This document shows positions 3,466-63,380 of a stretch of 64,000 bases of DNA, piece by piece; position 1 is the first letter of the stretch; the number at the start of each line of letters is the position of its first letter. This DNA is from a virus. Made by a program: the position numbers and the translations under genes. The notes below the pieces were generated by a model that was not told the origin of the DNA, searched no databases, and saw only the letters and a program-made list of their open reading frames with translations. The DNA is taken from the IMG/VR virus record IMGVR_UViG_3300017971_000207, positions 62,001 through 126,000 of that record. The stretch is one strand, 5' to 3'.

Positions 3466-3494
3466 CACTTAACAAGTAATTAGGGCATTGTCAA
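3466..3494 (-). promoter_or_regulatory. Sigma70-type promoter for the double-MerR gene
   Basis: On the minus strand, TTGACA (3494-3489), a 17-bp spacer and TAAGTG (3471-3466), nine nt before the ATG at 3456. The -35 lies inside the 3' end of the DEAH helicase gene. Confidence 0.6.
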
Positions 3495-8917: not shown

Positions 8918-9247
8918 CTACCCCTCCTTGGGCTCCCCACCCGCCCGGTCCTTTGACGTCTCGCGGTCAGCATCACCGGCAGGGAATGCTGCCACGTAGC
9001 GGCGATCAAAGTCGATGGACGCTCGAAGGGGGCGCCGTGCGTGGTCCCGCTCCCGCTTCCTACCCTTCTGCGTCAGCTTGATGTTGTCCGCCGGGCCCTC
9101 GTCCGAGCCGCGCGCCAGATAGCCGTACCGGGTTAGCTGCGCCCTGGCTATCTGGAAAGCATCCTTGAAGGATGTTGCCCCGCGCTCGCGCATTATCGCT
9201 AGGGTCATATGCTTTACCAGGCGCGGGATATCCGCAGGACCAGCCAT
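8918..9247 (-). CDS. Unknown protein between DnaB and primase (109 aa)
   Basis: Not recognised. The N-terminal 50 residues are predicted helical (FKDAFQIARAQLTRYGYLARGS), the C-terminus is Arg/Lys- and Asp-rich and probably disordered. Its ATG overlaps the DnaB stop (TAATG) and it ends 5 nt before the primase start, so the three genes are translationally coupled. A replisome accessory role is inferred from position only. Confidence 0.7.
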   Translation of the reverse strand: MAGPADIPRLVKHMTLAIMRERGATSFKDAFQIARAQLTRYGYLARGSDEGPADNIKLTQKGRKRERDHARRPLRASIDFDRRYVAAFPAGDADRETSKDRAGGEPKEG

Positions 9248-22910: not shown

Positions 22911-23257
22911 TCCTAGCCCTGGCAGCCCTGGTGCTAACCGGCTGTCCCCAGTTTAAGCCGTGGGCCCGAACAGCCCTCGAAGCAGCCCGACACGCCTGCG
23001 CTGCCTACGCGGAGCAAACGGGCCTGTCCTTCAAGGACGTGTGCGACACCGAGGAGAAGCTACGTCCGTTTATCGATTCGATCCTAGCAGCTCAAGCAGC
23101 AGCCGCGGCAAAGGGGGCGGCCGGAGCCTGCAAGTGCCCAAAGTGTGAGGAGGCCCCCAAGCCCGCTGCCCCCGCACCGAAGCCGCCTCCCCCCACGCCC
23201 TCCGCAAAGCCGGAGGCCAAACCCATCCCCAAGCCTGAGCCAGCACCAGGAGGCTGA
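22886..23257 (+). CDS. Small lipoprotein with Pro-rich tail (possible outer spanin)
   Basis: Signal sequence TTLILALAALVLTGC with a lipobox LTGC, so the Cys near residue 20 should be lipidated. A short helical part with a CKCPKC cluster follows, then a Pro/Ala/Lys-rich tail. Starts inside the last codons of the upstream membrane-protein gene. Pro-rich small lipoproteins overlapping an inner-membrane gene are typical of Rz1-like spanins; a lipid-anchored virion protein is the alternative. A lipoprotein with this signal suggests a Gram-negative-type envelope but does not prove it. Confidence 0.65.
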   Translation: MRKAATTLILALAALVLTGCPQFKPWARTALEAARHACAAYAEQTGLSFKDVCDTEEKLRPFIDSILAAQAAAAAKGAAGACKCPKCEEAPKPAAPAPKPPPPTPSAKPEAKPIPKPEPAPGG

Positions 23258-23258
23258 G

Positions 23259-26200
23259 ATGACGGAGAAAGGCACAGGCTACATCCCATCGCCAGAGGAC
23301 GAGCGGGACTACCCGCTGATAGGCCCAGGCGAGAACGCCCTCTTCGGGGCGCTGAACACAACGGTCCCCACCGAGCATCTAGCAATGCTACCGTTGATCG
23401 ACTTCATCCGTGATCAAGGCGGCACCAACTCGTGCTTTCCTGCGGGCACTCGCGTGCTCCTGGAAGGCTTTACAGAGCGACCTATCGAACAGATTGCTCC
23501 AGGAAACCGTGTGCGGACGCACACAGGCCGAAGCGGTGCCGTCACAAAGGTGTCTGAGAGACCCTACGAGGGGCTGCTGTATTCGATCAAAGTAGGAGGC
23601 TGGATATACCCCCTAGAGGCTACTCCCGAGCACCCCGTAGCCGTCATCGCCAACGTGTCCGCCAGAGCAAAGCACGGAGACTTCGAGCCTGGTGAGCTAA
23701 CGTGGCGCCGGTTTGACGCGATACGTCCAGGAGATCGTGTAGTCATGCCTGCAGACACCCGAGAGTTCCCCGAGGACTATCGGTCTGCGTGGCACGTGCT
23801 GCGCGTAGCGGACTATCTGGAAGGGGAGTACTGGGAGGAAGATGGCGCTGTTCGAGCGGCCATGGGAAGACGGGGGAGTGAGATACCTGCGGAGCTGGGG
23901 CTCACCCCCGATATCGGCAGGCTTCTCGGGCTGTTCCTAGCAGAGGGCAGCTTTCTCAAACCCAGCGGCACTAAACAGGGTGTGGCGTTCACCTTTGCGC
24001 GGCACGAAGCGCTCCTCCACACCTTCGTCTTGGAGGCCATGAGGACACACTTCGACCTGGAGGGCCAGAAGGAGGAGACGGAGCAGAAGCCCAACGTCAC
24101 AACGTTGCTATTCTACAGCTCAACTGTAGCGCAGCTGTTCTACGCTCTGTGCGGAGAAGGGGCGCTACAGAAGCGCGTGCCCGACGTGTTTTTTGAGACA
24201 GGGCGCGACGTGAAGCTCGCACTCATCCGAGGGTGGTTTCAAGGAGATGGGTCTCAAGACCCCGTTCGTCTCCGCAGAAAGAAGGACGGCACTGTGCGCA
24301 AAGCTGCGGCCGTTCAAGGAGTCACAAGCTCTGAGGAGCTCCACCGTGGGCTATACCGCTTAGCCTCTCTCTGTAACATCAAGCTCAGTACGCAGCAGAG
24401 AAAGGTAGCGGAGCATCAAAACGCTGCCGGCCGCGAGCTGAACCTTTACGGGGACAACATCCTAAAGGTGTTCCCCGATGCAGCACCGCGCCTGGAAGCC
24501 GCTGGGATAAAGCTATCGGGACGGACCCGCTACCGAAAGCACGCCTTGGGATATCTGTGCCGCGTAGAGGAGGTTTCTATGCGTGAGGCCCCCGCAGACA
24601 CTAAGGTCTACAACTTGGAAGTCGAGGGGGATCACTCGTACGTTGCCGAGGGCATCGCCGTCCACAACTGCGTCTGGCAATCCATCCAGCAGCAGCACTA
24701 CATCGCACAGGGGGTACACGGGGTGCAGCAACGTCTACCCCTGAGCGTGATGTTCGGCTACTACCACACGCGCCTTCGCGGGGGCACGCAGAGGTTTGAC
24801 AATGGCTGCTTCCCCAGGCTGGCCTGGCAGGTGGCGGAGAAGATCGGATTCTGTATCGAGGACCTGTGGCCCTTCAAGGAGCCCGAGATAAACCGACCGC
24901 CGAGTCTAGATGCCACCTCCGGGGCCATAGACCAGCGGTGGGTGCACGGCTACTACCACATCCTCGGACGCCCACGAGAGGAGGAGGTCCGACAGGCCCT
25001 CTCAAACAACCACCCTGTGGTATTCGGGACCGTCGTCGACAACGATTTCAAGCGGTACAAGGGCTCTAACCTTAGCACCGAGCCTATGAAGCCTCCGACG
25101 GGCCACTCCGGACGCCATATGATGTGCGCAGTTGCGTACGATCAAGACGGTCTGTGGGTGATCAACTCGTGGGGCTGTTACGACGATAAGACGGAGATTC
25201 TAACCGCCGCTGGGTGGAAGTCTTTTGCTGATGTCGTGGTGGGTGAGCCCGTCGCAACGCTTAATAGCCACGGGGAGCTGGAGTACCAGAATACGACTGA
25301 CGTTCAACGCTACATCTACGACGGAGAGTTGTGGTCTTACCAGTCCCAAGGCGTAGACCTTGTTGTGACGCCAAACCACAACATGCTCATAGGACGCCGT
25401 TGTCGCGAAGGCGGTAAGCGCGTCCCCAAGTGGGAGCGCGTTCCGGCTGATCGCATCAACACCAAACACTTCTTGATGAAGAAAACGGCTGCCTGGTCAG
25501 GCGAAGAGCCTCCTTACATTGAGGTCGGTCCCCACAGGATACCAACGGAGCTTTGGGTCGAGTTCCTCGGCTACTTCTTGTCCGAAGGTCATGCCCGAGA
25601 GAACGTGGTCCAACGGCCGGAGCGTGTGGCGCTTAACGGTACGACAGGTCGCGAGAAGCGGTACAGCGCGTGCAGCGAAACTCAGTACCTGGTGGGTATC
25701 CATCAAACCAAGTCTGAAGGTGTCTTCAAGATGGGCGCCTGTCTACGTCGCATGCCTGCCGCCTTCACCCGCATAACAGGGGGTTGGCAGGCAACATCTA
25801 GCCCACTGTGCGAGCATCTTCTCCCGCTCGGAAAAGCGCATCAGAAGTACATTCCTCCCTACGTCAAAAGGCTCTCTCCTCGGCTTCTACGAGTGTTCCT
25901 GAAGGCCGCTTGTCTCGGCGACGGCTCCCCTGTAGGCCGCAACGGCAGCGTCTACTACACCTCGTCCAAGCGGCTTGCTGACGATATACAGGAGGTTGCA
26001 CTAAAGGCCGGGATGTGTGCAGATATACGCGAGGATGATCGCCGCGGTCGTACTAATGCGCGGGGGACCACTCGCTATGTGAACTACCAGGTGGCAATCA
26101 AACCCGTGAGGGGAGAAACCAAACCCAAAGGAGGCTTCACGCCAACAAAGATCCCCTACAAAGGTTTCGTGCGCTGCGTCACAGTACCGAACGGTCTGGT

Positions 26201-26369
26201 CTATGTTCGACGCAATGGTAAGGCGGTCTGGTCGGGCAACTCCGACTGGGGCTGCCCGGACCCATCAGGGTTCTATCGATCGGGGTTCTTTCATATGTCC
26301 TGGGAATGGGTAAACTGGTCAAGTGCCACTGATTGGTGGGCCGTCCAATACCCAAAGATGTTCGTTTAG
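23259..26369 (+). CDS. Papain-like (C1A) cysteine protease with two inteins
   Basis: The extein (about 269 residues) reads GYIPSPEDERDYPL at the N-terminus, then DQGGTNS / CVWQSI (catalytic Cys, corresponding to papain QGxCGSCW), GRHMMCAVAYD (catalytic His region) and WVINSWG / SDWG (Asn motif of papain NSWGxxWG). Intein 1 ends immediately before the catalytic Cys; intein 2 begins immediately after NSWG. The start at 23259 has AGGAGG 7 nt upstream and follows the lipoprotein stop by one nt. No signal peptide is seen. The neighbourhood (membrane protein, lipoproteins) suggests a role in lysis, virion maturation or entry; the sequence does not decide. The precursor should be inactive. Confidence 0.9.
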   Translation: MTEKGTGYIPSPEDERDYPLIGPGENALFGALNTTVPTEHLAMLPLIDFIRDQGGTNSCFPAGTRVLLEGFTERPIEQIAPGNRVRTHTGRSGAVTKVSERPYEGLLYSIKVGGWIYPLEATPEHPVAVIANVSARAKHGDFEPGELTWRRFDAIRPGDRVVMPADTREFPEDYRSAWHVLRVADYLEGEYWEEDGAVRAAMGRRGSEIPAELGLTPDIGRLLGLFLAEGSFLKPSGTKQGVAFTFARHEALLHTFVLEAMRTHFDLEGQKEETEQKPNVTTLLFYSSTVAQLFYALCGEGALQKRVPDVFFETGRDVKLALIRGWFQGDGSQDPVRLRRKKDGTVRKAAAVQGVTSSEELHRGLYRLASLCNIKLSTQQRKVAEHQNAAGRELNLYGDNILKVFPDAAPRLEAAGIKLSGRTRYRKHALGYLCRVEEVSMREAPADTKVYNLEVEGDHSYVAEGIAVHNCVWQSIQQQHYIAQGVHGVQQRLPLSVMFGYYHTRLRGGTQRFDNGCFPRLAWQVAEKIGFCIEDLWPFKEPEINRPPSLDATSGAIDQRWVHGYYHILGRPREEEVRQALSNNHPVVFGTVVDNDFKRYKGSNLSTEPMKPPTGHSGRHMMCAVAYDQDGLWVINSWGCYDDKTEILTAAGWKSFADVVVGEPVATLNSHGELEYQNTTDVQRYIYDGELWSYQSQGVDLVVTPNHNMLIGRRCREGGKRVPKWERVPADRINTKHFLMKKTAAWSGEEPPYIEVGPHRIPTELWVEFLGYFLSEGHARENVVQRPERVALNGTTGREKRYSACSETQYLVGIHQTKSEGVFKMGACLRRMPAAFTRITGGWQATSSPLCEHLLPLGKAHQKYIPPYVKRLSPRLLRVFLKAACLGDGSPVGRNGSVYYTSSKRLADDIQEVALKAGMCADIREDDRRGRTNARGTTRYVNYQVAIKPVRGETKPKGGFTPTKIPYKGFVRCVTVPNGLVYVRRNGKAVWSGNSDWGCPDPSGFYRSGFFHMSWEWVNWSSATDWWAVQYPKMFV
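23433..24668 (+). other. Intein 1 of the protease (412 aa), before the catalytic Cys
   Basis: Begins CFPAGTRVLLEGF, block B ATPEHPVAV, ends IAVHN; the +1 residue is the protease's catalytic Cys (24669-24671). Degenerate LAGLIDADG motifs LLGLFLAEGSF and LIRGWFQGDGS are present. Confidence 0.93.
25176..26240 (+). other. Intein 2 of the protease (355 aa), after the NSWG motif
   Basis: Begins CYDDKTEILTAAGWKSF, block B TPNHNMLIG, ends AVWSGN with +1 Ser. The penultimate residue is Gly, not His. DOD-like motifs FLGYFLSEGHA and FLKAACLGDGS are visible. Confidence 0.9.
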
Positions 26370-30217: not shown

Positions 30218-33200
30218 CTATCTTATCGGACAGCTTCCGCTAGCGCACGCCTCCTCAATCTCCATCTCACCGCCGTTGACCAGCGGGTGGTCGTGGTCGA
30301 TGTTGGAGGCTAGACGCTCAAAGGTCTCGCGGTCTATCGCCTCGTAGGGAGGCTGGGCGTAGCCATGAGCCTTGGGCAAGCAGGTGGTGCTCTTAAGCCG
30401 CGGCACAAACTCCCCGAGAAGAGCGGCAAGCTCCTCCTGCTCCGTATCGGCGTCAAAGGTGATAGTGGCACTGACGGCATTATCTGCCCAGTGCTCCTGT
30501 ACGGCCGCCTGCCGTTCAAACTGCTGGCGCAGCGTCTGCGTCTGCGCAGTCACGCGCCCCGCGGGCGTCGACTCTGCGAAGCTGAACACGATCGTGTTCC
30601 CTGTCTGGTCGTACACATCAAGCTCGTGCGGAACGCCAGCCTCCATAAGGGCGCCGGCTAGGTTGTCCGCAATGTCCAAGCGAACACGGCGGATGTAGTG
30701 GCGCGCGAAGGGGGCGTGGATGCCTGGCGAGCTGCGGCTTAGCAACGATATGGTGCCGCTAGGCTTAACGGTGGTAACGGTCTTGGGGATAGCTGTGCCT
30801 AGCTCAATGGCGTAGCGCGTAGCCTCCCTGCGACATGCTCCGTACCACGCATCGAGCTGTGCTGGCGTCCAGTCGAAGTCGCAGATACCCCCCAGCCCTA
30901 CTCCTAGCCTCATGTTCTGCTGCTGCACCGCGTTCGAGATGGGGTCCGTCAGCTTAGACAGTCGATTGCGAAAGCAGTAGCGCGTGACAAGGCGAAACAC
31001 CTCGTCAGCGTCAGTCGTATCGTGGAACCGTGAGGGGAACACCTCGGACAGGTTGCACGCCTCACGGTTGTACAGCGGCAGCTCGCCACAGTTGCCCGTC
31101 GCTACGCCGTCTGCAATGAAGGTCTCGTGCGTCGGCTGCTTGAGGCAGAACACCGGCTCGTGTCCGATAGGCTCGATGCTCACGATCTCCGTGGTGAACC
31201 GCTCCGCATAGGGTCCCCTCTTCCACGAGCTGCGCCAGCTTAGATAGCGATCCTCCATATCCTCTCGGAGGAATCCGAGCTGCTCATAGAAACGGACCGC
31301 GTTGGCCTTTGAGACAACAAGGTCGTACTGCGTCTTGCACCAGTAGTCAGCAAGGTCCCCCTTACCATCAGGCAGACGGCGATAGCCTGCGTCTCGCCGC
31401 TTGTAGACGGACGACACGATGCCGAAGTTTAGGAGCAGCGTTTGAACATCACGGAGAAGAGCTGGGTTGCTCTGCGACAGACGGACGGAGAAGGTCTGCT
31501 TTTCGGCTGTCCAGTTTATCTGACCGTCTGTTGCGAAGAGGCCGCGGAGGTAGCCGCGGACGCACTTTTTGGTCCCGCGCCACACCACCTCTGGCACAGA
31601 GCCCTTCTCACGATAGCCTACCTCAGCCAGGGCACGGCTTAGCAGCGAGCTGCAGATGTCCTCGTAGCGATCATACACTTGACAACCGAAGCGCTTCAGG
31701 TGCCCGTTACGCGGCGCTACGGAGGCCGCTACCTCGTGGCACCACGCTAGATATTGCCCGGACATCTTGCGCTTGGCGTCCCAGAAGAATAGATGAGCGC
31801 GCTTGCCGTCCTCGCTCCAACAGCCGTCACCTTCGAGCCACCCAATAACATGCCCGAGAGCCTCGCTGCCGTCCGCCCCCCACAAACCCTCGCCGGATTG
31901 AAGTAGCAAGGTATCTCCAGGAGACAGGTCCTTAAGCTCCACAAAACCGTCGGGGGTCGGGAAGCGGTGATACGCCGTAGCCTTGATCTCGTTACCGTGC
32001 CGGGTCCGCATCCGGTAGACCTTCTCGGAGGCGCTTGTCTGGAAAGCCGCCTCCGCCTCGCGATGCACCGCTCCAGGCGAGACGTTCGTACGGTCCGTGC
32101 CGACACGAGCGTCGGTGGTGACCTGGAAAGCTTTGGCGTCCTTGAGATCTCGGATGGGTATTAAGCCCCATTGCGTGACGACACGGGTGTCGCCGGTGAG
32201 GCAGGGGTTGATCCCAACGATACCGGGGTCCGTCTCACGACATAGAGGGAGGTTGAACACACCAGGCTCGCCACCAGGCTCCGCAACGATGTCCGAAACG
32301 AGCTGGCGCCAGTCAAACCCCTCCAGCTCCTCCCTGCTTTGGAAGGCCAACGAGTTGTTGCTGGTGTGCCGATGCAAGGTTACCAGGCTCAGGTCCTTCT
32401 TCGCATTCCGGAAGGCTTGGTCGGTCGGGCTCCCCAAGGTCATCAAGGCGGAGTTGTGGACGAGCAAGCCGTTGCAGACAAACTCCTCAGCACCAGCTAC
32501 CTCGATATCGTAGGTGTCCGCGGTCTCGTCCGTCTCGGTCACGTCCTGCACACAGATGGGCACGAGACCCTGAGCTTCTCCGCCCAGCTCTTCGTAAAGC
32601 GGGAAGACCATCTGTTTGCTGGTTGAATCCCACCGACCTTTCCAGAAGGTGGTGCTGTGTTCTGCGCGCACCATCTCGGAGGGGTAGCCGTAGTCACACT
32701 GAGACACCGCGCTTACACGGACGCGCTTGGTCGCGTGGGGCTGCACTAGCTCCAGAAAGCGGGCCGTCGCGGTCCGTCCCACCAGATTGAGGTGGTACAT
32801 AGGCTGCCAAGACCCTCTAGCAGAGCGATTAAGCTTCAACCTCGTCGGTATTCCCAGGCTCGCGTAGACCGCCTGCACCTGCTCCAGGAAGGAGGGGTAC
32901 ACCGAGGCGCAGAGAACCACGGGGCGATTGCGTGCTGCACCGTCCGCATCTAGGAGGCCCGCCAGGTAGGAGGCTCGAACATGGGGGAGCCCCTCCAAGA
33001 TGAACGACGGCACGTTAAGAGGCTGACGGGGTTTCTTCAGATTATCGTCCAGGTACCAGGCTAGCTGCTTGGACTGTGCTCGTATCCTTAGACAGTCGTC
33101 GAGGGCTCGTGGGGGGCGCTCGTTGAGCCGGACCCCGTAGCGCGTCAATTGCTCACGGCATCTGTTTGCTATTGCGTTGTGATAGCCGTCGTTAGCAACT

Positions 33201-35401
33201 ACCACAGAAACATAGGCGTTGAACCCGTCGTCGCGTCGGTTGGCCCTGGTGTAGCCGTCTCCCTGAAAGTAGCCAAGAAACCAAGCGCTCTGCTCATCTA
33301 ACCGCGGAACGGTTATATCGACGCACGTCGTAGAGTGTTTCGGCTTGTCGTAGGACCACGAGGGCAGCTCAGTAGGACGCCCTGGTAGAATGGCGTCGAC
33401 AAACACCATACGGTCCCCTGGCTCCAGCTCTTTAGCCTCTTTGAACTCGTAGCGGCCGGGGGCTGTGAGGACGGCCACTCGATGGTTTCCGGTACAACGA
33501 AAGACGCCCATTTGCGTGGTCAGCTCGTAAAGAGCCTGAACGCCCTGGTGTACGTGCTCCGAGACCTTAGCAAACTTCGAGCCCCCTGTGAGAACCTCAT
33601 CGCCTACCGCAACGGCCTCGATAGGCTTCAGCCCGTTCTTGGTGTGAACCAAGGAGCCTTCGGGGAGACAGCGACGCACGTTGCCTGCCTTCACGCATAG
33701 CCCGATGTAGTTGGTGACATCCAGGCAGTCGATCGAACTAAGCCTCCGACCCCGAGCTCGACGGACAACCTCCCAGCAGGACCTCAGCATATGAGTTAGC
33801 GGGCCAGGGCCGCCGGCCACTCCGCCAAAGGTCCGGATGGGTGTACCTCGCGGGCGCACGCGGGACACGTCAATGACCACATCAACCCCCTGGAAGGCTG
33901 AGAGCAGCACCTCACCTAACGCCTTCATCCAGCCCTCACGTGAGTCCTCTACATCGTAACGGTGTGTGCTCCCGTTGAGCATCTCTCCGCTGTACTTCGA
34001 CACCTCGGTGTAGTTGGGGTGGTCCAGCCGACACTCGATGAACAGACGCGGGTTGCCTGGGGCAACAGGAGGGAGTGCCCCAATGTTATCGAGCCCTACA
34101 CCAACGCCTCCGCCAAGCATGAGCTGCTCAGACGTCCACACCCAGTCGTCCACGCCGGACAGCTGCACAAACCAGCAGTTGCCCGTTACTACGCCCCCCT
34201 CCAAGGTAAAGCTACCTGTCTCGGGCTCGGTAACGCAGAAGACCTCCTCTTCTTGTCCCTCATCCACGATCTCTCGCACGGTGTAGCGGGTAGGCTCGGG
34301 AACGACTGTAAGAATCTCCAGGCGTCCTGAGCGTATACCGTAGTTTGTCTCAGTGCTTGGATCCGTTGACCTACCAGTAACGCAGTATCCTAACAGTGGC
34401 GCACGCTCAGCCACCCAGTCCAACGCAGCGCTGTTCTGGGAGGACAGGCGATTGCTGGGCTTCCCCGGTCTAAGAGAGCCATCAGCTGCTAAGAGTCCGG
34501 CGAGAAAACCGGCCTGGTAAACAGTATCCAACCTGGTTGGGGGCAGGCTCTTGAGATCCTCCACAGACTTAAAGAACAGCACAGGCTCTCCATCCTGAGA
34601 AGGCGGCGTGCACGTGTACGAGAAGAAGCTAGCCCTCTCCAACCGCTCTCTGTGAGCAACCTTCTTACCGCACAACCGTAGCCTAAACGTGCTGAGCTTG
34701 AGCGTCTCACGGCTCCCATCTCCAAAGATGAGCCCATGAGCAAACCCATCGTTGAACGTCTTGGGGTCGCATCCTTCAAGCTCTTTTGCGCAAGCGGGTG
34801 TTACTAGGATCTGGTCACCCACCCGGAGGTCTGTGACCTCCCCGCGGTTCGAGGTGAACCAACGGTGCTCGGCTGTAGCTGTGAACTCAAAAGCGAAGCT
34901 GGACCTTAGCCCTGTAGGCTTCATGCGATAGCGGAGGAGCCGTTGCCTACCAAAGGACCTAACCTTTGCTGGACGCCATTGCCCATCCTTGGTCAACACC
35001 TCTACGGTTTCTCCTACCGCCTCCTCCAAGGTTGCAAGAACACCGTTGGCCCAGAAGCGAGTACCTCCCGAAAAGCAGTTGAACCGAGCGTTAGCAGGGA
35101 TGCCTGGCACACCACCGGTCCATAGCCCGCGACCGGGGGGCAACGCCTGGCAGGTCCAGAAGAGCTCAAACAGCCGCTCAGCCTCGGCGCGGCAGGGGCT
35201 TGGAGCCAAGGACACATTACCCTCCACCACGCGGCGGATAGTGTCGGTCCACGACTCCTCGTTGCGGCAGTACTTCGTTAGGTAGGTGCTACGGGAGAGT
35301 ATGCTCTCGAACGGGTCGCGGGCCCTCCTGTATGGCTCCAGGAAACGCTCCTGAAGCCGAAATTCCTGCGTCTCACGGGCCTTGACGACGATCTGCTGCA
35401 T
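30218..35401 (-). CDS. B12-dependent (class II) ribonucleoside-triphosphate reductase with three inteins
   Basis: It reduces ribonucleotides to deoxyribonucleotides by an adenosylcobalamin-generated thiyl radical, supplying phage DNA synthesis. The extein (about 650 residues) resembles the monomeric Lactobacillus-type enzyme: PPGRGLWTGG, N / CWFVQL (first redox Cys), NP / CGELPLYNREAC with the radical Cys and its partner 11 residues later (C408 and C419 in Lactobacillus numbering), VKPSGTISLLS, and a C-terminal CASGSC pair (C731/C736 equivalent). The ATG at 35401 follows GGAGAAGC. The inteins sit before the first redox Cys, at NVRR / SAL, and before the radical Cys. Confidence 0.93.
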   Translation of the reverse strand: MQQIVVKARETQEFRLQERFLEPYRRARDPFESILSRSTYLTKYCRNEESWTDTIRRVVEGNVSLAPSPCRAEAERLFELFWTCQALPPGRGLWTGGVPGIPANARFNCFSGGTRFWANGVLATLEEAVGETVEVLTKDGQWRPAKVRSFGRQRLLRYRMKPTGLRSSFAFEFTATAEHRWFTSNRGEVTDLRVGDQILVTPACAKELEGCDPKTFNDGFAHGLIFGDGSRETLKLSTFRLRLCGKKVAHRERLERASFFSYTCTPPSQDGEPVLFFKSVEDLKSLPPTRLDTVYQAGFLAGLLAADGSLRPGKPSNRLSSQNSAALDWVAERAPLLGYCVTGRSTDPSTETNYGIRSGRLEILTVVPEPTRYTVREIVDEGQEEEVFCVTEPETGSFTLEGGVVTGNCWFVQLSGVDDWVWTSEQLMLGGGVGVGLDNIGALPPVAPGNPRLFIECRLDHPNYTEVSKYSGEMLNGSTHRYDVEDSREGWMKALGEVLLSAFQGVDVVIDVSRVRPRGTPIRTFGGVAGGPGPLTHMLRSCWEVVRRARGRRLSSIDCLDVTNYIGLCVKAGNVRRCLPEGSLVHTKNGLKPIEAVAVGDEVLTGGSKFAKVSEHVHQGVQALYELTTQMGVFRCTGNHRVAVLTAPGRYEFKEAKELEPGDRMVFVDAILPGRPTELPSWSYDKPKHSTTCVDITVPRLDEQSAWFLGYFQGDGYTRANRRDDGFNAYVSVVVANDGYHNAIANRCREQLTRYGVRLNERPPRALDDCLRIRAQSKQLAWYLDDNLKKPRQPLNVPSFILEGLPHVRASYLAGLLDADGAARNRPVVLCASVYPSFLEQVQAVYASLGIPTRLKLNRSARGSWQPMYHLNLVGRTATARFLELVQPHATKRVRVSAVSQCDYGYPSEMVRAEHSTTFWKGRWDSTSKQMVFPLYEELGGEAQGLVPICVQDVTETDETADTYDIEVAGAEEFVCNGLLVHNSALMTLGSPTDQAFRNAKKDLSLVTLHRHTSNNSLAFQSREELEGFDWRQLVSDIVAEPGGEPGVFNLPLCRETDPGIVGINPCLTGDTRVVTQWGLIPIRDLKDAKAFQVTTDARVGTDRTNVSPGAVHREAEAAFQTSASEKVYRMRTRHGNEIKATAYHRFPTPDGFVELKDLSPGDTLLLQSGEGLWGADGSEALGHVIGWLEGDGCWSEDGKRAHLFFWDAKRKMSGQYLAWCHEVAASVAPRNGHLKRFGCQVYDRYEDICSSLLSRALAEVGYREKGSVPEVVWRGTKKCVRGYLRGLFATDGQINWTAEKQTFSVRLSQSNPALLRDVQTLLLNFGIVSSVYKRRDAGYRRLPDGKGDLADYWCKTQYDLVVSKANAVRFYEQLGFLREDMEDRYLSWRSSWKRGPYAERFTTEIVSIEPIGHEPVFCLKQPTHETFIADGVATGNCGELPLYNREACNLSEVFPSRFHDTTDADEVFRLVTRYCFRNRLSKLTDPISNAVQQQNMRLGVGLGGICDFDWTPAQLDAWYGACRREATRYAIELGTAIPKTVTTVKPSGTISLLSRSSPGIHAPFARHYIRRVRLDIADNLAGALMEAGVPHELDVYDQTGNTIVFSFAESTPAGRVTAQTQTLRQQFERQAAVQEHWADNAVSATITFDADTEQEELAALLGEFVPRLKSTTCLPKAHGYAQPPYEAIDRETFERLASNIDHDHPLVNGGEMEIEEACASGSCPIR
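31091..32203 (-). other. Reductase intein 3 (371 aa), before the radical Cys
   Basis: Begins CLTGDTRVVTQWGLIPI, ends GVATGN, +1 Cys is the thiyl-radical Cys of NP-CGE. DOD motifs VIGWLEGDGCW and YLRGLFATDGQI. The penultimate residue is Gly rather than His. Confidence 0.92.
32453..33670 (-). other. Reductase intein 2 (406 aa)
   Basis: Begins CLPEGSLVHTKNGLKPI, block B CTGNHRVAV, ends LLVHN with +1 Ser (NVRR-SALMTLGSP). DOD motifs FLGYFQGDGYT and YLAGLLDADGA are canonical. Confidence 0.93.
34178..35077 (-). other. Reductase intein 1 (300 aa), before the first redox Cys
   Basis: Begins CFSGGTRFWANGVLA, block B TATAEHRWFT, ends GVVTGN, +1 Cys of NCWFVQL. DOD motifs GLIFGDGSRE and LAGLLAADGSL. 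Penultimate Gly, not His. Confidence 0.92.
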
Positions 35402-35432
35402 AGCTTCTCCACGCGCACGCTTGCCCGCCAAG

Positions 35433-38280: not shown

Positions 38281-38906
38281 CGCTCGTCCTCCTCGGGCAC
38301 CGGCCCAGGCTCGGTTAGAAAGCGCTCGTACTCCTCAACAAACCATTCCTGCTGCGGGGTTTGGATAGTGCCCTTGCGCGAGGCTCGCGTCTCCGCGATG
38401 GCATCCGCAGCGGACATACCCATCAGGATGAGGCAGCAGGCAACGACGAGGCCCGTGCGGCCTAAGCCTCCGCGGCAGTGCACAACGATATTCTCGCCAT
38501 GCTCCAGCCGCTTCACGAGCTCCCGGACGAGCTCGTGAAGGCTCGCCATCGAATGCGGGACGCTCACGTCGGGGAAGGGGTAGTAGATCGAGGCCATCCC
38601 CGCATGGCCAACCTCATAAAGCAGGTCGGGAATCTGCAAGAGCTTGAGCTCATGCCACTCCACCAGGGGGACAAGCACATCCACCTTGTGGTGACGAGCA
38701 AGAACCCCCACATCTGCCGGCAGGTTGCGGTCCCATATAGCGGTCAGCCCCCCCTCGTCCTTCTTGCCCGGCGCGAAGGTCATCCCAAGACGGCCCGGAA
38801 GGCCCGTCTCGACCCAGTCAACTAGGATCGGGTGGGAGATGCTGGTGCGGCGCTGTCCCGGCGGTTGGGGCTTAGCTTTCATCATCTTTGCTGCGTTCTT
38901 GGTCAT
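38238..38906 (-). CDS. Dual-specificity / tyrosine phosphatase (222 aa)
   Basis: The P-loop VVHCRGGLGRTGLV (HCx5R, about residues 140-153) and a preceding FPDVSVPHSMASL with the general-acid Asp identify a cysteine-based protein phosphatase close to CDKN3/PTP-like enzymes. It would dephosphorylate Tyr/Ser/Thr or an RNA 5' end; the substrate is not evident. The promoter TTGACA-17-TACACT lies 18 nt upstream and GGGAGAG precedes the ATG. Confidence 0.85.
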   Translation of the reverse strand: MTKNAAKMMKAKPQPPGQRRTSISHPILVDWVETGLPGRLGMTFAPGKKDEGGLTAIWDRNLPADVGVLARHHKVDVLVPLVEWHELKLLQIPDLLYEVGHAGMASIYYPFPDVSVPHSMASLHELVRELVKRLEHGENIVVHCRGGLGRTGLVVACCLILMGMSAADAIAETRASRKGTIQTPQQEWFVEEYERFLTEPGPVPEEDERWEHYVDTSWSNQS

Positions 38907-39367: not shown

Positions 39368-41671
39368 CTATAGCGAGCTAACGTCGCCTCGGGCGAAGTA
39401 GAGCTCATGCTTAGCGCGAGTGATGGCAACGTAGAGCAGGTTGTGCTCCTCGTCTGCAGGGGGCTTACCGCACCACCACTGGAGATAGGTATCGCGGAGC
39501 ACGAAAACGCGATCTCGCTCCAACCCTTTAGCCTTATGGGTGGTGGACAAGGTTACGCGGGAGCGTGCATCATCGTCGTCGCAGAAGAACTGATCGATGC
39601 GTTGCTCCAGCTCCCGGATAGAGGAGGCACCTTCCATGAGGGCGAGCATGCAGCGGCGCTTATCATCCAGCAGCCCGGTGTCGCCCGGCGGCTCCTTACT
39701 TTCTAGGCGCTCTGTCTCCTTGTCGTACCAGTCCTGCAGCCACGTCTGCAGCTCCCCTAGCGTTCGGGCCTTGGATCGCTCGATAAGCTTCAGCAGCACC
39801 GCGCTGAACCGACGCCCGAGAATACCGGCAGGGCGCTTGTCCAGCAGGAGCTTGAGGCAAAGGCGGATCAGGGGAGCGTTGGTCCGAGAGAGGACGAAGT
39901 CTCCCGGCCTGGCATCCCGGAAGAGGTCCTCCACGGCGCACTTCTTGACGAGGCCCTCGGGACGACCTGGCTCGACCTCCAGGTCTGGGACAATGCGCTG
40001 AGCTTCTCGGACAATCGCCGCGTCGCAGCGGTAGGTGATGGGGAGCGGGAGGACCTTAGCGTTGAGGCGCTGAATGATACGGGGGATTGAATGGGAATCG
40101 GCGCCGCGGAACAGATATATAGAGTTGAGGACGACCACACCATTGGCGGCGTAGCTGTGATCCTCCTCCACATCGAGGGAGAAGACGGGACCCTCGTAGC
40201 TGCTCACCTCTACACGGTCGACAGGCTCCCAGCGGTTCTGTCCGTCAGGTAGAGGTAGGGACATGAGACCAGGCTCTACGTTCGATGCGAACACTTTGAA
40301 GTAGGTCGCACGTCCCTGCTTAGCTCGGACGTCCGGCATATCTGGCCACGGATACAAAGGGAGAGCTAGCTCGCGATTATGGTCCGAGAGAGCTGCAAGT
40401 CCTCGGCCCGTGTTGCTGTCAGCTACCGCGTCGAAGAGTCGGCGGATGGTATCCTCTGTAATGTGGTTTGCCCCGTGTACGGGCTCAAAGGTCATGGTAG
40501 GGAGGCCGTACCGCGCCGCCACCACACTCTCGTAGAGGCTGGCCTCGGTGCGGTCATTGTGAGTACGCAGTATCCAGGTCTTGTCCGCCTGCTCCATGCG
40601 TGCACGGTGCGCTAGATGAAAGATGCGTGCGTTGCTGGAGGTGGTGAAGAGCTGGCACCACCCGACGCGGAAGCCGTACCCTTCTCGCCACATCAGGTAG
40701 GTTACACAGGTCTTCACGGTACGGTCTGACCAACGGCAAAGCAGTTTGTGGTTGGGAGTCATCGGCACGTCTCGCCCGGCAACACCGACGGTGCGGAGAG
40801 CACCGCTGTAGGGGCGCTGGGCTATTCTGTAGTGGCGTCCCCCCACCATCCTCTGCGCGTTGCGACTCCACCCAGCAATGGTCGCGCCTGTGTTACTCTC
40901 GGGCGCTAATAGCTCAATGGGAACCTCCGCACCTGTGTGATCTATCTGCACACGAACGCCGGGCGGGTGGCACTGCCGGTCATCCCCTACAGCGCAGATG
41001 CGTCCCCCGCGCCCGCAGGCGCGCAGGGCCAGCTCGACCTGAGCGCGATTGAGATCCTGGGTCTCGTCCACGAAGACGTGCTTGTACTTGGGGGTCTGCA
41101 TGCGAAGCTTGACGGGCATCCAGATCATGTCGTCGAAGTCGTAGGTCTTCTGGTCCTCCAGACACACCTTCAACATGAGCAAGATACCTTGGATAAATTG
41201 CTTCCGCTCTCGGTCCCCATCACCGTAGTAGAGATCAAAAGCGTCTATCAGGTTGTCTAGCTCCTGCGGCTCCTCTACCAGCAACCCCTTGGCCTTTGAC
41301 ACAGCATCCGCCAGGCTCCGCTTCACATCCCAGGCAACGTCGTAGTACCAGGGAAGGTGCTCCTTCATCAGGCGAAACACCTTCCGCTGGTCCAGCTCCG
41401 CCGAGTTACCCCACGCCTTCCACAGTATCCCGCGCCCAAAAGCGTGCAGAGTCTTGATATTGGGGCCCCGCGGCGCCCTAGACTCCATCTCCTCGCGAAT
41501 CGCGCGGTTAAAGGCCACCACCAAGGTGCGATGGTTGCGCTTCGGTAGGTGACGCAGAGACTCGATAATCGTTGCTGTCTTTCCAGACCCCGCCCGAGCA
41601 AGCACAACGGTGTGTCCGTTGCCCGCCTTGGCGTCCTCAAAGACCGCTTCCTGATACTTGCTCCACTGCAT
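39368..41671 (-). CDS. UvrD/PcrA-like superfamily 1 helicase with an intein
   Basis: 3'-5' DNA helicase of SF1A. The extein (about 484 residues) shows a Q motif near FEDAKAG, Walker A LARAGSGKTAT, FNRAIREEM (motif Ia), motif II VFVDETQDLN, motif III GDDRQ / SIYLFRGA split by the intein, LSTTHKAKGLE (motif V) and YVAITRAKHEL (motif VI). The ATG at 41671 has ATAGGAG 8 nt upstream. The promoter TTGACA-17-TAGGGT is 35 nt upstream. It is shorter than cellular UvrD, with reduced 2B-type insertions, as usual for phage versions. Confidence 0.92.
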   Translation of the reverse strand: MQWSKYQEAVFEDAKAGNGHTVVLARAGSGKTATIIESLRHLPKRNHRTLVVAFNRAIREEMESRAPRGPNIKTLHAFGRGILWKAWGNSAELDQRKVFRLMKEHLPWYYDVAWDVKRSLADAVSKAKGLLVEEPQELDNLIDAFDLYYGDGDRERKQFIQGILLMLKVCLEDQKTYDFDDMIWMPVKLRMQTPKYKHVFVDETQDLNRAQVELALRACGRGGRICAVGDDRQCHPPGVRVQIDHTGAEVPIELLAPESNTGATIAGWSRNAQRMVGGRHYRIAQRPYSGALRTVGVAGRDVPMTPNHKLLCRWSDRTVKTCVTYLMWREGYGFRVGWCQLFTTSSNARIFHLAHRARMEQADKTWILRTHNDRTEASLYESVVAARYGLPTMTFEPVHGANHITEDTIRRLFDAVADSNTGRGLAALSDHNRELALPLYPWPDMPDVRAKQGRATYFKVFASNVEPGLMSLPLPDGQNRWEPVDRVEVSSYEGPVFSLDVEEDHSYAANGVVVLNSIYLFRGADSHSIPRIIQRLNAKVLPLPITYRCDAAIVREAQRIVPDLEVEPGRPEGLVKKCAVEDLFRDARPGDFVLSRTNAPLIRLCLKLLLDKRPAGILGRRFSAVLLKLIERSKARTLGELQTWLQDWYDKETERLESKEPPGDTGLLDDKRRCMLALMEGASSIRELEQRIDQFFCDDDDARSRVTLSTTHKAKGLERDRVFVLRDTYLQWWCGKPPADEEHNLLYVAITRAKHELYFARGDVSSL
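40124..40972 (-). other. Intein in helicase motif III of UvrD (283 aa)
   Basis: Begins CHPPGVRVQIDHTG, block B TPNHKLL, ends GVVVLN with +1 Ser. The usual penultimate His is Leu. No LAGLIDADG motif is visible; instead an insert WILRTHNDRTEASLYESVVA, then ARYGLPTMTF lies between the splicing blocks. Confidence 0.9.
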
Positions 41672-41705
41672 GTGCGTTGCTCCTATCGCTCGCATAAGAT
41701 GCTCG

Positions 41706-41734
41706 ACCCTACCACATAAGGAAAAAGTTGTCAA
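41706..41734 (-). promoter_or_regulatory. Promoter for the UvrD-like gene
   Basis: TTGACA (41734-41729), 17 bp, TAGGGT (41711-41706). Confidence 0.7.
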
Positions 41735-41772
41735 CAGTGTGAAAAACTGCCCCAGCTTTGTCAGATTGGGAG

Positions 41773-41797
41773 GGTGTCTGTTCGTCCTGCAGACACC
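41773..41797 (+). promoter_or_regulatory. Hairpin between ribosome site and start codon
   Basis: GGTGTCTG and CAGACACC arms around a 9-nt loop, directly before the ATG at 41798. GGGAGG (41768-41773) lies just ahead of it, so folding would bring that ribosome site next to the ATG. A GTG inside the first arm (41774) is an in-frame alternative start. Confidence 0.45.
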
Positions 41798-42145
41798 ATG
41801 ACGAAGCTAATCAATCTCACCCCACACCCTTTAACCCTTAGAGACGCCAACGGCGAGGACACTGTGATCCCGCCCTCCGGAGCTGTTGCTCGTGTAGCGA
41901 TGGTTGCCGGTGCGCTGGAGCACGTTGAGGGCGTCCCCATCCCCATCGCTGGCGCAGATCAACCCGGCCCCGTCCAAGGGCTCGGAGAGCCGCGGCCTGG
42001 TGTTCTATACATCGTCTCGGCGATGGTTGGGTCCTATTGTCGAGGGCGCCACGACGTGGTTGTCCCCGGCACGGGGCCGGCCGACGGTGCAATCCGAAAT
42101 GCCAAGGGGCACATAGCTGCTGTGACACGGCTTAAGAGGGTTTAG
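41798..42145 (+). CDS. Conserved phage-type unknown protein (115 aa)
   Basis: Begins MTKLINLTPHPLTLRDANG, a pattern common in small conserved proteins of unknown function from phages and actinobacteria. Mostly beta-type. Divergent from the UvrD gene. The start region has a hairpin (41773-41797). Ends overlapping the broken minus-strand gene by 14 nt. Confidence 0.65.
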   Translation: MTKLINLTPHPLTLRDANGEDTVIPPSGAVARVAMVAGALEHVEGVPIPIAGADQPGPVQGLGEPRPGVLYIVSAMVGSYCRGRHDVVVPGTGPADGAIRNAKGHIAAVTRLKRV

Positions 42146-42410
42146 GCGCGGGCTCGGGCAGGTGGGGTAGCGGACCCACCTTGGCCTGCCCGAGCATCTC
42201 CAGCAGCAGCGTATGAGCCACAGCATACTCGTTCACAAGGTCCTGGTCCGGAGCTGTCGGGCACCCCTTCGCGGCCTGCAGAGCTGCTTGCCAGCGACGG
42301 ATGATCTCTACTGCCCGAGGTCATCGAGGCGAGCCCTCGGGCAGCTCAAGCTTCGCCTCTACCTTAGCGCGGCGAAGTCGCTCTGCGCCGAGGTCCACAA
42401 GCTTGCTCAT
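42132..42410 (-). pseudogene. 92-codon gene interrupted by an in-frame TGA
   Basis: MSKLVDLGAERLRRAKVEAK, then LELPEGSPR, then TGA (42323-42321), then in the same frame PRAVEIIRRWQAALQAAKG and on to PEPAPKPS and TAA. The start overlaps the upstream stop as ATGA, supporting the frame. After the TGA the reading continues as a plausible helical protein, whereas the alternative frame opened at 42324 gives low-quality sequence. It is a nonsense allele, a read-through gene (TGA-C context), or a sequence error. Confidence 0.6.
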
Positions 42411-42610
42411 GCAGAGTTCTTTGAGGCTAGAGAGGGGATTCGCGGCAGCAGTGCTAGCCGACGGATGAAAGGGGGCAGCGGAGGCAGCGGCGGTATCTGC
42501 GGCAAGACGGCGTCGTGGTTGTGCAGCCTAACCTTGGCCATCTCCAGCCGATGCTCTGCTAGCTCGACCTCGTACTCCAGCTCCTCACGCTTGTCATCGT
42601 GCGTCATCAT
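42407..42610 (-). CDS. Small coiled-coil protein (67 aa)
   Basis: N-terminal charged helix (REELEYEVELAEHRLEMAKV) then a Pro-rich segment PQIPPLPPLPPF. TAGGAG precedes the ATG. Unknown function; coupled to the next gene by ATGA. Confidence 0.55.
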   Translation of the reverse strand: MMTHDDKREELEYEVELAEHRLEMAKVRLHNHDAVLPQIPPLPPLPPFIRRLALLPRIPSLASKNSA

Positions 42611-43136
42611 CTACTCCTAGCAGCTTGAGGGCCCGCGAGACATGCTCATCCGTGAGCCCCCCACCATACATGTCAGTCCGAATAAAACGCTCGCCAAGCG
42701 CTCGCGTCATGTCCTCGTCATCGATGGCCACCCACTGCTTAACGGGAACCCGCTTTAGCCACGCGAGGACGGCCTCTGCGCGTGTTGTTCGGTGGTAGGT
42801 GTCCGCATCTATCCCCTCTGTCACAACGGCGCCTATGACCCGCTCAGGGCTCCGCAAGCCTCGGTCGTAGAGGATGGAGGCGAGGTAGGGTACCGGCTCC
42901 TTCCAGGCCCACGAGGTACTGAGGACGATTGAGGCGTCTGCACGCTCCACCAGGCCCGAGAGGCGCGCCACCTTGGAGGGGTCGAGAAACTGCAGGTCCT
43001 CCAGCATCCCGCCCAAGTAGTTGGGGAACTCCTGCTGGATCGCATCGAGTGGTTGCTTTCGGGCAGAGGCGTTCCAGTCCTCGTCGTTCAAGACGCCATC
43101 GAAATCGAGGAACACTACTCGGAGGGGCTTACGCAT
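42594..43136 (-). CDS. HAD-family phosphatase/hydrolase (180 aa)
   Basis: RVVFLDFDGVLN (motif I, nucleophile Asp), IVLSTSWAW (motif II Ser/Thr) and WVAIDDEDM (motif IV). This HAD type occurs in phage and bacterial genomes, sometimes linked to RNA repair or nucleotide salvage. ATG at 43136 with GGAGGA upstream, overlapping the gene before it. A second HAD protein lies at 49120. Confidence 0.8.
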   Translation of the reverse strand: MRKPLRVVFLDFDGVLNDEDWNASARKQPLDAIQQEFPNYLGGMLEDLQFLDPSKVARLSGLVERADASIVLSTSWAWKEPVPYLASILYDRGLRSPERVIGAVVTEGIDADTYHRTTRAEAVLAWLKRVPVKQWVAIDDEDMTRALGERFIRTDMYGGGLTDEHVSRALKLLGVDDDAR

Positions 43137-43525
43137 CGGAGCATCTCCTCCGTTCGTACTACCAGGTCCGACAGGTCCAGCTCCAGTCCAGCCACATCGC
43201 ACTGCGCGGCTGCATGTAGCAGGACGGTACGTACCCCGCGGGCGGGGTCGACCCAGCGGCTAAGCTTCTGTGCACCAATAAGTCCCAGCAGGGACCAGAT
43301 ACGGAAGGCGGCCGACACCGCCACCTCCTTATCCTCCAGCGCCTTGACGACGGCTAGCATCATCCTGTTTATTGGGTGGTCCGTAAGCTTCATCTCGACC
43401 CCATCTAGCTCGAAGCTCTTACCAAGCTCGATCGGCACCACGTTGCCGCTGGCAATGGCCTCGTTTGCGGCATCCCATGCGACCATGAAGCTCTCGATGG
43501 AGACCGCTTTGATCTCAAGCATCAT
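43115..43525 (-). CDS. Unknown protein (about 136 aa)
   Basis: Not recognised. Starts at one of two adjacent ATGs (43525/43522) overlapping the previous stop. Contains strand/helix alternation and a helical C-terminus (DLVVRTEEMLRC). Overlaps the HAD gene start. Confidence 0.6.
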   Translation of the reverse strand: MMLEIKAVSIESFMVAWDAANEAIASGNVVPIELGKSFELDGVEMKLTDHPINRMMLAVVKALEDKEVAVSAAFRIWSLLGLIGAQKLSRWVDPARGVRTVLLHAAAQCDVAGLELDLSDLVVRTEEMLRCVSPSE

Positions 43526-44054
43526 CCACCTCGCTGTAGCCTCCCCCATGCTGGAGCACGGATAGGCTAACGAGGCGAGCAAGAATAAATCGGACCAGGT
43601 GCTGCCGACGGATGGTCTCGCCCACATCCTCGCACCAGCGTTGCCCGCTCTCCAACTGCGCACCGCAGACCACCAGATTAGGGGGTGGCTTAGCCCAATG
43701 CGGCACCACCATGAGCACCTCCTCAGCACGGCGCCCATCAAGCTCAGCCTTGAGCCGCAAGGGCTTAGCGCCAGGCTCTGCCGGGATACACGGCCGCAGC
43801 CCGTCGGCCAGCGACCGCAGCTTACCGTCGATCGCTTTGACACGGTCGGCAATCCCACAGCAACGACAGCGCCCCGTGCGACCGTCCGAGAGCAGCTCCC
43901 AGTCGTGTCCTGTAGCTTCCGCTAAAGGCGGCACCAAGCCGCGGAGGCGCTCATCAATGATGCGCCGAAGGGTGTGCAGGAGGTCCTCGTCGCCTTCCTG
44001 GCGTTGCTCCTCCAGCAACGCCCAGATCTTTTCGTCGTCGGTCATACAGCTCAT
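43515..44054 (-). CDS. Unknown Cys-containing protein, probably leaderless (179 aa)
   Basis: Helical N-terminus (MTDDEKIWALLEEQRQEG), a CRCCG cluster and later Cys residues suggest metal binding. The promoter TTGACC-17-TAGTAT ends 8 nt before the ATG at 44054 (MSCMTDDEK), so the mRNA would have little or no leader. No family recognised. Confidence 0.6.
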   Translation of the reverse strand: MSCMTDDEKIWALLEEQRQEGDEDLLHTLRRIIDERLRGLVPPLAEATGHDWELLSDGRTGRCRCCGIADRVKAIDGKLRSLADGLRPCIPAEPGAKPLRLKAELDGRRAEEVLMVVPHWAKPPPNLVVCGAQLESGQRWCEDVGETIRRQHLVRFILARLVSLSVLQHGGGYSEVDDA

Positions 44055-57099: not shown

Positions 57100-57341
57100 C
57101 TGACCTGCCCTGCGCGTTTGGGGGTGCAGGCCCGTACTCCCTAGAACCAGGTAGCTCGAAGCGGAGAAGTTGCATGCTCCCGATAACGTTATCGGGAGTT
57201 TTAGAGGGCCTAGGGAGGAGTAGGGAGGCAGCTCGGCGAGGGAGCCCTGTAAAACTCCCTTGTGTTAGTTATAGGGAGTTTAGGGTACATCCGTTTGGTC
57301 TAGGGAGTTTCCGGCGCGCCTGCGGCGAGGCCGGCAGGGCC
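57100..57341. other. Gene-free region with repeated AGGGAGTTT elements
   Basis: About 240 bp without a supportable gene. It has a perfect 22-bp palindrome (57177-57198, arms CTCCCGATAAC/GTTATCGGGAG) followed by TTTT, an AAACTCCCT/AGGGAGTTT hairpin (57252-57281), and several CTAGGGAG-type words in both orientations, including 57301. Possible regulatory, origin or packaging site. Confidence 0.5.
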
Positions 57342-57372
57342 GGCCCAAGCCCTAGAGCCTAGGGCTTGGGCC
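57342..57372. terminator. 14-bp stem hairpin at the end of 57359
   Basis: GGCCCAAGCCCTAG-AGC-CTAGGGCTTGGGCC, includes the stop codon of the gene. No U-run. Confidence 0.5.
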
Positions 57373-57553
57373 GCGGCACGCCTCGGTGGAGGCGAAGCGG
57401 CGGGGCCTCGATGAGCAGAGTGATCGCGCGCTCGTAGTCACCCTCACGCTCGGCCTGCAGAGCTGCGGGCGGTAGGACGTAGCACTCGTGGCCCACCGGC
57501 TTGCCATCACTGAGCCGGTGGGCGTGGTTGCAGTAGGTGGTGCAGTAGATCAT
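57359..57553 (-). CDS. Small Cys/His protein (64 aa)
   Basis: MIYCTTYCNHAHRLSDGKPV with CxxxC/H residues, then a Pro/Arg-rich tail. Start overlaps the previous stop by 4 nt. Unknown. Confidence 0.5.
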   Translation of the reverse strand: MIYCTTYCNHAHRLSDGKPVGHECYVLPPAALQAEREGDYERAITLLIEAPPLRLHRGVPRPKP

Positions 57554-61067: not shown

Positions 61068-61111
61068 GCGCTCTCGGGCCTGCTGGTGGAGTAGCGCGGG
61101 CCCGAGAGCGC
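61068..61111. terminator. Hairpin after 61117
   Basis: GCGCTCTCGGGCC/GGCCCGAGAGCGC, 13-bp stem, 5 nt after the TAG stop of the gene at 61117. Contains two copies of the CTCTCGGGC word. Confidence 0.55.
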
Positions 61112-63294: not shown

Positions 63295-63344
63295 GGTTGG
63301 TCTCGTTGCGTTGGTTGACGGCGGCTGTGAGCTGTGGTAGGGTC

Positions 63345-63370
63345 GAGGACCTCTGTCAAGAGAGGTCCTC
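63345..63370. promoter_or_regulatory. Hairpin overlapping a -35 box
   Basis: GAGGACCTCT-GTCAAG-AGAGGTCCTC; the minus-strand TTGACA (63359-63354) is in the loop and arm. It could be an operator or a terminator for 63381. Confidence 0.5.
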
Positions 63371-63380
63371 GGGGGGCAGA

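What the first reader, a model, noticed from the sequence alone, without database searches (positions are those of the whole stretch)
42132..42410. In-frame TGA in an otherwise continuous 92-codon gene
The start is supported by ATGA overlap with the upstream gene. After the TGA at codon 30 the same frame continues for 62 codons with natural-looking sequence, whereas the frame opened by the ATG that overlaps the TGA gives poor sequence. The TGA is followed by C, a leaky context. Possibilities: read-through, recoding, nonsense mutation or sequencing error.
Basis: seen in the sequence. Interest (0 to 1): 0.5.

Follow-up and report, generated by a model that had tools for sequence, protein, structure and literature searches.

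The report
Prematurely stopped small phage gene
A small gene of unknown function in a bacterial virus carries a stop signal one third of the way in, most likely an ordinary disabling mutation (or a sequence error), and nothing found points to a special decoding trick.

Summary
Frame 42410->42132 reads 29 codons, TGA (42323-42321), 62 codons, TAA; its ATG overlaps the upstream gene's stop. Codon usage says both halves are coding in the same frame; the frame opened by the ATG overlapping the TGA is not. Of 900 stops with long open flanks in the 145,433-base phage record, this is the only one that looks like an interrupted gene by my criteria. TGA ends 7 of 19 training genes, and no UGA-reading tRNA was found. 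No relative of the gene was found, so the decisive comparison at this codon failed. A second assembly of the same phage (2 differences in 101,396 bases) ends before the locus. The read-through protein models, at low confidence, as three helices, the TGA at the start of helix 2. The TGA lies in the loop of a perfect 10-bp inverted repeat. That is not the geometry of a SECIS or a downstream stimulator, and such repeats are common here. Best reading: a recent nonsense mutation in a dispensable gene of this phage. Sequence error is the main rival; functional recoding is possible but unsupported. Interest low.

The parts
42324..42410 (-). first part of the interrupted gene: ATG plus 28 codons; modelled as helix 1 and a linker
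   Evidence: translation; codon score 0.347; helix 3-22, low confidence
42321..42323 (-). in-frame TGA, codon 30, followed by C
42135..42320 (-). 62 open codons in the same frame after the TGA; first in-frame ATG, GTG or TTG (GTG 42236) only after 28 codons; modelled as helices 2 and 3 and a proline-rich tail
   Evidence: (score 0.202), (helices 30-49 and 55-77, low confidence)
42132..42134 (-). TAA that ends the frame
42407..42610 (-). upstream 67-codon gene, stop/start overlap ATGA with the interrupted gene; no relative found for it either
42311..42344 (.). perfect 10-bp inverted repeat with a 14-nt loop; the TGA is at the 3' end of the loop on the minus strand
   Evidence: I7; folds
42152..42195 (.). 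11-bp inverted repeat (22 bases between the arms) with an inner GGTGGG/CCCACC stem near the end of the gene; possibly a terminator between convergent genes, without a T run
   Evidence: I4; minus strand z -3.21, plus strand z -1.65; not called as a terminator
41798..42145 (+). convergent 115-codon gene of a phage family of unknown function, tail-to-tail overlap of 14 bases with the interrupted frame
   Evidence: (phrog_21731, E 1.4e-18)
42142..42324 (-). frame opened by the ATG that overlaps the TGA (60 codons); judged non-coding
   Evidence: (score -0.40)

Best explanation
A small gene of unknown function (92 codons with the TGA, probably a helical protein) in an uncultured intein-rich tailed phage carries a premature TGA stop. 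Translation starts at ATG 42410, probably coupled to the gene upstream, and ends after 29 residues, before the predicted helices 2 and 3 are made, so this copy probably yields no functional protein. The interruption is recent, because the 62 codons after it still have the codon usage of a working gene. Shown: the reading frame, the coding character of both halves, the lack of genome-wide recoding. Inferred: translational coupling, loss of function, recency, dispensability.
For: Frame and ATGA overlap. Both halves score as coding in one frame; the five other frames do not. TGA ends 7 of 19 training genes, including genes of 1060 and 771 codons, so it is a working stop in this phage. No tRNA in the window and only three tRNA-Leu in the rest of the record (a tRNA cut by a border between fetched pieces could be missed). 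Of 900 stops with at least 25 open codons before and 40 after, 16 have coding-like flanks on both sides. Eleven of these have a start codon within 4 codons, so they read as adjacent genes, some of them as shadow frames. Of the other 5, four lie opposite longer ORFs (judged), leaving this one alone. Model with three helices, TGA at the start of helix 2 (pLDDT 68.9).
Against: No relative shows a sense codon at this position, so the intact ancestor is inferred, not seen. No decay is seen after the TGA, which a functional read-through or a sequence error would also predict. The TGA lies in the loop of a perfect inverted repeat; the 13 such places in 64 kb cover about 0.65% of positions (computed), a coincidence this reading leaves unexplained. 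The fold around it is somewhat more stable than shuffles (z -2.37, 6 of 200 as good; z -1.83, 10 of 200). The scan would count an interrupted gene with a start codon soon after the stop as two genes, so a second case could hide there.
Confidence: 0.6

Rival explanations
1. Consensus error or minority variant in the metagenome assembly: the virus population mostly carries a sense codon and the gene is intact.
For: G000 is a virus record that the tool classes with IMG/VR records; that it was assembled from a metagenome is my inference. Two records of the same phage differ at 2 of 101,396 bases, so a few such differences are to be expected in a record this long, and any may fall in a gene. Post-TGA codon usage is undecayed.
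Against: The rate is low (2 per 101,396 bases), so an error that makes a stop in a given gene is unlikely beforehand; if about 5% of random changes make a stop (my rough figure), some 0.1 false stops are expected per record. The two records may share reads, so the rate is uncertain. The other record stops before the locus.
Confidence: 0.22
2. Functional UGA read-through: a 29-residue product and a minor 92-residue product, UGA being read by a near-cognate tRNA in the leaky UGA-C context, as in the read-through coat protein of phage Qbeta (recalled).
For: Post-TGA frame coding-like as a whole, no start codon for 28 codons. TGA followed by C. TGA at a predicted helix boundary (low confidence). 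Fold around the TGA more stable than most shuffles.
Against: The first product would be one helix and a linker. The 74 bases from the TGA onward fold no better than shuffles (z -0.60), so no downstream stimulator is evident. The hairpin that holds the TGA would be melted by a ribosome sitting on it (inference). No conserved case in relatives, none being found.
Confidence: 0.08
3. Two separate products: a 29-codon gene and a downstream 34-codon gene starting at GTG 42236 or by re-initiation.
For: GTG 42236 in the same frame, with AGGA four bases before it. The sliding score is weak for some 15-codon pieces just after the TGA and firm from about 42265 on.
Against: The 62 codons after the TGA score as coding as a whole; the 34-residue product would hold only helix 3 and the tail.
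Confidence: 0.06
4. Selenocysteine at the UGA, or a T4 gene 60-type ribosome bypass using the hairpin (both recalled).
For: UGA inside a stable hairpin (MFE -26.8 kcal/mol for 62 nt).
Against: Bacterial SECIS hairpins follow the UGA (recalled); here the UGA is at the 3' end of the loop. No Rfam family matched the site (two chance-level hits elsewhere in 41700-43200). No redox-type motif and a single Cys in the product. Bypass would not be needed, since the frame continues directly after the UGA.
Confidence: 0.02
5. The TGA is a true stop and the ATG overlapping it starts the next gene (ATGA coupling).
For: An ORF of 60 codons opens there.
Against: Codon score -0.40; over the 62 codons this frame scores -0.416 and 86% of wrong-frame pieces score higher. 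G+C by codon position is 0.70/0.80/0.48 against 0.63/0.46/0.70 in the training genes.
Confidence: 0.02

Closest known systems
Ordinary nonsense mutation / phage pseudogene
   Same: One in-frame stop in an otherwise continuous coding frame, with TGA a normal stop elsewhere in the genome
   Different: No intact relative is at hand to prove it
Qbeta-type UGA read-through (recalled; papers seen in the search listing only)
   Same: UGA in frame, coding sequence after it
   Different: Qbeta extends a complete coat protein (recalled); here the first part is only 29 residues and no signal or conservation was found
Phages with reassigned stop codons (search listing, e.g. PMC11210395)
   Same: In-frame stop codon in a phage gene
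   Different: Reassignment affects many genes (TAG in 41 ORFs of phAss-1, start of the abstract of PMC10607447 as listed); here one gene, and no suppressor tRNA found in the record

Membership tests
Nonsense-mutated gene (pseudogene) | Coding character of both sides in one frame | tested here: met
Nonsense-mutated gene (pseudogene) | Relatives carry a sense codon at the position | tested here: inconclusive
   no relative found:
Stop-codon reassignment (TGA as sense) | Many genes interrupted by TGA; TGA rare as a stop | tested here: not met
   TGA ends 7 of 19 training genes; no second interrupted gene stood out
Stop-codon reassignment (TGA as sense) | Suppressor tRNA (anticodon UCA) in the phage | tested here: not met
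   ARAGORN on all pieces of the record: 3 tRNA-Leu only; host tRNAs unknown; borders between pieces not bridged
Selenoprotein gene | SECIS hairpin just after the UGA | tested here: not met
   hairpin encloses the UGA in its loop; the 74 bases from the UGA on have z -0.60; no Rfam match at the site
Programmed read-through | UGA and both frames conserved in relatives | tested here: inconclusive
   no relatives found (same calls as above)
Programmed read-through | Extended protein observed | not testable with these tools
   needs proteomics or a reporter

The most novel reading that the evidence does not exclude
A DNA phage gene with programmed UGA decoding (read-through or a short hop) at a stop codon held in the loop of a hairpin, giving a 29-residue and a roughly 92-residue product.
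Probability: 0.06. Interest if true: 0.55.

Novelty: new member of a known kind. Interest (0 to 1): 0.15.

Why it matters
If it is a plain nonsense mutation it matters little: small phage genes of this kind are often lost (general knowledge). If the UGA were decoded it would be an unusual recoding case in a DNA phage with a hairpin around the stop. The result also shows how to separate a single interrupted gene from a changed genetic code in an orphan phage, without homologues.

Tried and rejected
Homologues at the codon: no relative of the read-through protein or its second half in viral contigs or genome contigs, in 15 helicase-bearing records or six capsid-bearing records, and none elsewhere in its own record. 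tblastn of phages (7 records) and plasmids (4 records) gave only hits at E 1 or weaker. A DNA pattern with the codon left open gave 0 matches in viral contigs. In a local search of 43 fetched loci the first 29 residues alone gave a 17-residue match at E 0.036 (0.76 with the whole protein) elsewhere in the second record of the same phage (L032); I treat it as chance. The tools say that near records may be left out, and none of these searches had a positive control for this gene.

Synteny: 36 and 37 found neither the DNA 41700-43900 nor the HAD gene in the six capsid-bearing records; no row printed for G017-G019 lies between window 39173 and 49674 (rows for G016 were dropped there before printing). 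These records are fragments of 4 to 113 kb, so absence of the locus from those phages is not shown. Relatives of the convergent plus-strand gene (3 loci) show no relative of the eight other local proteins that I tested below E 0.3. The upstream 67-codon gene has no relative found.

Second assembly of the same phage, IMGVR_UViG_3300017963_000207: covers record positions 1-101396 only, the locus is at 104132-104410.

RNA signals: Rfam gave only two chance-level hits elsewhere; folds. Fold search of the low-confidence model against viral structures: no match at E 0.001 or better, best E 0.23; the PDB was not searched. Promoter and terminator scan: nothing at the site.

An earlier count said 'only 4' of the 16 cases lack a nearby start codon; the list shows 5, and the report uses 5. 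The stop-type counts come from a list to which I had added mostly TGA-ended genes, so I use the 19 genes for stop usage.

Full report
WHAT IS THERE. The finding lies on the minus strand of a 64-kb window that is positions 62001-126000 of a 145,433-base virus record. Reading from 42410 down to 42132 gives ATG, 28 more codons, TGA, 62 codons, TAA. The ATG overlaps the TGA of a 67-codon gene upstream (42407-42610) as ATGA, and the frame's end overlaps by 14 bases the end of a convergent plus-strand gene (41798-42145).

IS IT MORE THAN CHANCE. The open run alone is not: 10.2% of 1,757 wrong-frame inter-stop runs in confident genes reach 62 codons. Codon usage is. A codon model trained on 19 other genes of the window gives 0.347 before the TGA and 0.202 after it, in the same frame, close to the true-frame means of 0.240 and 0.237. 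Only 0.33% of 1,800 and 0.24% of 825 wrong-frame pieces score higher. The five other frames score from -0.44 to 0.02. The frame opened by the ATG over the TGA scores -0.40. In 15-codon slices the score dips around the TGA (0.08 to -0.04) and once more near 42295 (-0.14); short slices are noisy.

IS IT A CHANGED CODE. No. TGA ends 7 of 19 training genes (TAG 9, TAA 3). No tRNA was found in the window and only three tRNA-Leu in the rest of the record. A scan of the record, in six pieces, took 900 stops with at least 25 open codons before and 40 after; 16 have coding-like sequence on both sides (score above 0.1). Eleven of these have a start codon within four codons and read as neighbouring genes; some of the eleven are shadow frames (for example window 40088 plus, opposite the UvrD-like helicase). 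Of the other five, four lie opposite longer ORFs (positions 33181, 34733, 51783 and 107157 of the record, judged from the ORF lists), and the fifth is this one. So one interrupted gene stands out, not a pattern; an interrupted gene with a start codon close after its stop would have been taken for two genes.

IS THERE A RECODING SIGNAL. The TGA sits at the 3' end of the 14-nt loop of a perfect 10-bp inverted repeat (42311-42344). A bacterial SECIS or a read-through stimulator lies after the stop codon (recalled); the 74 bases starting at the TGA fold no better than shuffles (z -0.60, 45 of 200 as good), and Rfam shows nothing there. Against this, the 121 bases around the TGA fold better than most shuffles (z -2.37, 6 of 200 as good), and the 62-base hairpin region mildly so (z -1.83, 10 of 200). 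Perfect inverted repeats with arms of at least 10 and loops up to 20 are plentiful in this window: 33 nested matches, which I group into 13 places, against a mean of 1.4 nested matches in 20 first-order Markov sequences. Several lie inside genes. The overlap with the TGA is therefore a mild coincidence (13 places of about 32 bases in 64,000, about 0.65%), noticed after the fact, and I do not build on it.

COMPARISON WITH RELATIVES. None was found for the interrupted gene: viral contigs, genome contigs, phages and plasmids by tblastn (only E 1 or weaker), 15 records with a related helicase, and six records with a related capsid. No HMM family in PHROGs or Pfam matches at E 0.1. A second record of the same phage (IMGVR_UViG_3300017963_000207) agrees at all but 2 of 101,396 bases but ends 2.7 kb before the locus. 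In three further kin records (G017-G019, fragments of 62 to 98 kb) the locus was not found. Thus no relative shows whether a sense codon stood here.

STRUCTURE. AlphaFold2 from the single sequence, with TGA read as Trp, gives three helices, 3-22, 30-49 and 55-77, mean pLDDT 68.9, pTM 0.49; the other four models have mean pLDDT 64.6 to 56.1. The TGA falls at the start of helix 2. The search of viral structures gave nothing better than E 0.23. The model suggests, weakly, that the 29-residue product is not a complete domain.

VERDICT. Most likely a recent nonsense mutation in a small, probably dispensable phage gene without known relatives (0.6). The main rival is a consensus error or minority variant (0.22): two records of this phage differ at about 2 per 100 kb, so the rate is low but not nil. 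Functional read-through (0.08), two separate products (0.06), selenocysteine or bypass (0.02) and the ATG-overlap gene (0.02) are less likely. The finding is real but ordinary on present evidence.

LITERATURE. I saw search listings only, no full papers. They show that phages with reassigned stop codons and work on Qbeta are in print; none was checked for this gene family.

Noticed in passing
window 217-2532, 3491-6673, 9247-11856, 23145-26369, 30218-35431, 39368-41734; L019:9329-13492; L020:3077-7951: Intein-rich phage: intein-splicing and/or LAGLIDADG domains inside a RecA/UvsX-like gene (LAGLIDADG only), a ResIII helicase, a DnaB-like helicase, a 1074-codon gene of uncertain host protein, a class II RNR, a UvrD-like helicase, a T4-like portal and a PolA gene (in the UvrD-like and the 1074-codon gene the intein-splicing hit is below Pfam's cut-off). 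Four of them have two intein-splicing stretches, so perhaps more than one intein each.
   Followed up: partly
window, 13 places, e.g. 4703-4732, 17019-17046, 38511-38540, 57341-57373, 61068-61111, 63344-63371: Excess of perfect short inverted repeats (arms at least 10, loop up to 20): 33 nested matches against a mean of 1.4 in 20 Markov-1 sequences; some between genes, some inside genes, no shared sequence that I could see by eye.
   Followed up: partly
L019:18439-18524, 19032-19108, 19111-19186 (minus): The only tRNAs found in the record are three tRNA-Leu (TAA, TAG, GAG); two are 76-77 nt long, short for tRNA-Leu, which normally has a long variable arm (recalled).
   Followed up: no
record positions 1-101396 against IMGVR_UViG_3300017963_000207: A second record of the same phage, 2 differences in 101,396 bases, extends 11,484 bases to the left of this record's start.
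   Followed up: partly
window 42594-43202 (minus): HAD_SAK_2 domain protein (Pfam E 1.7e-25), a family named after RNA repair proteins, just upstream of the 67-codon gene.
   Followed up: no
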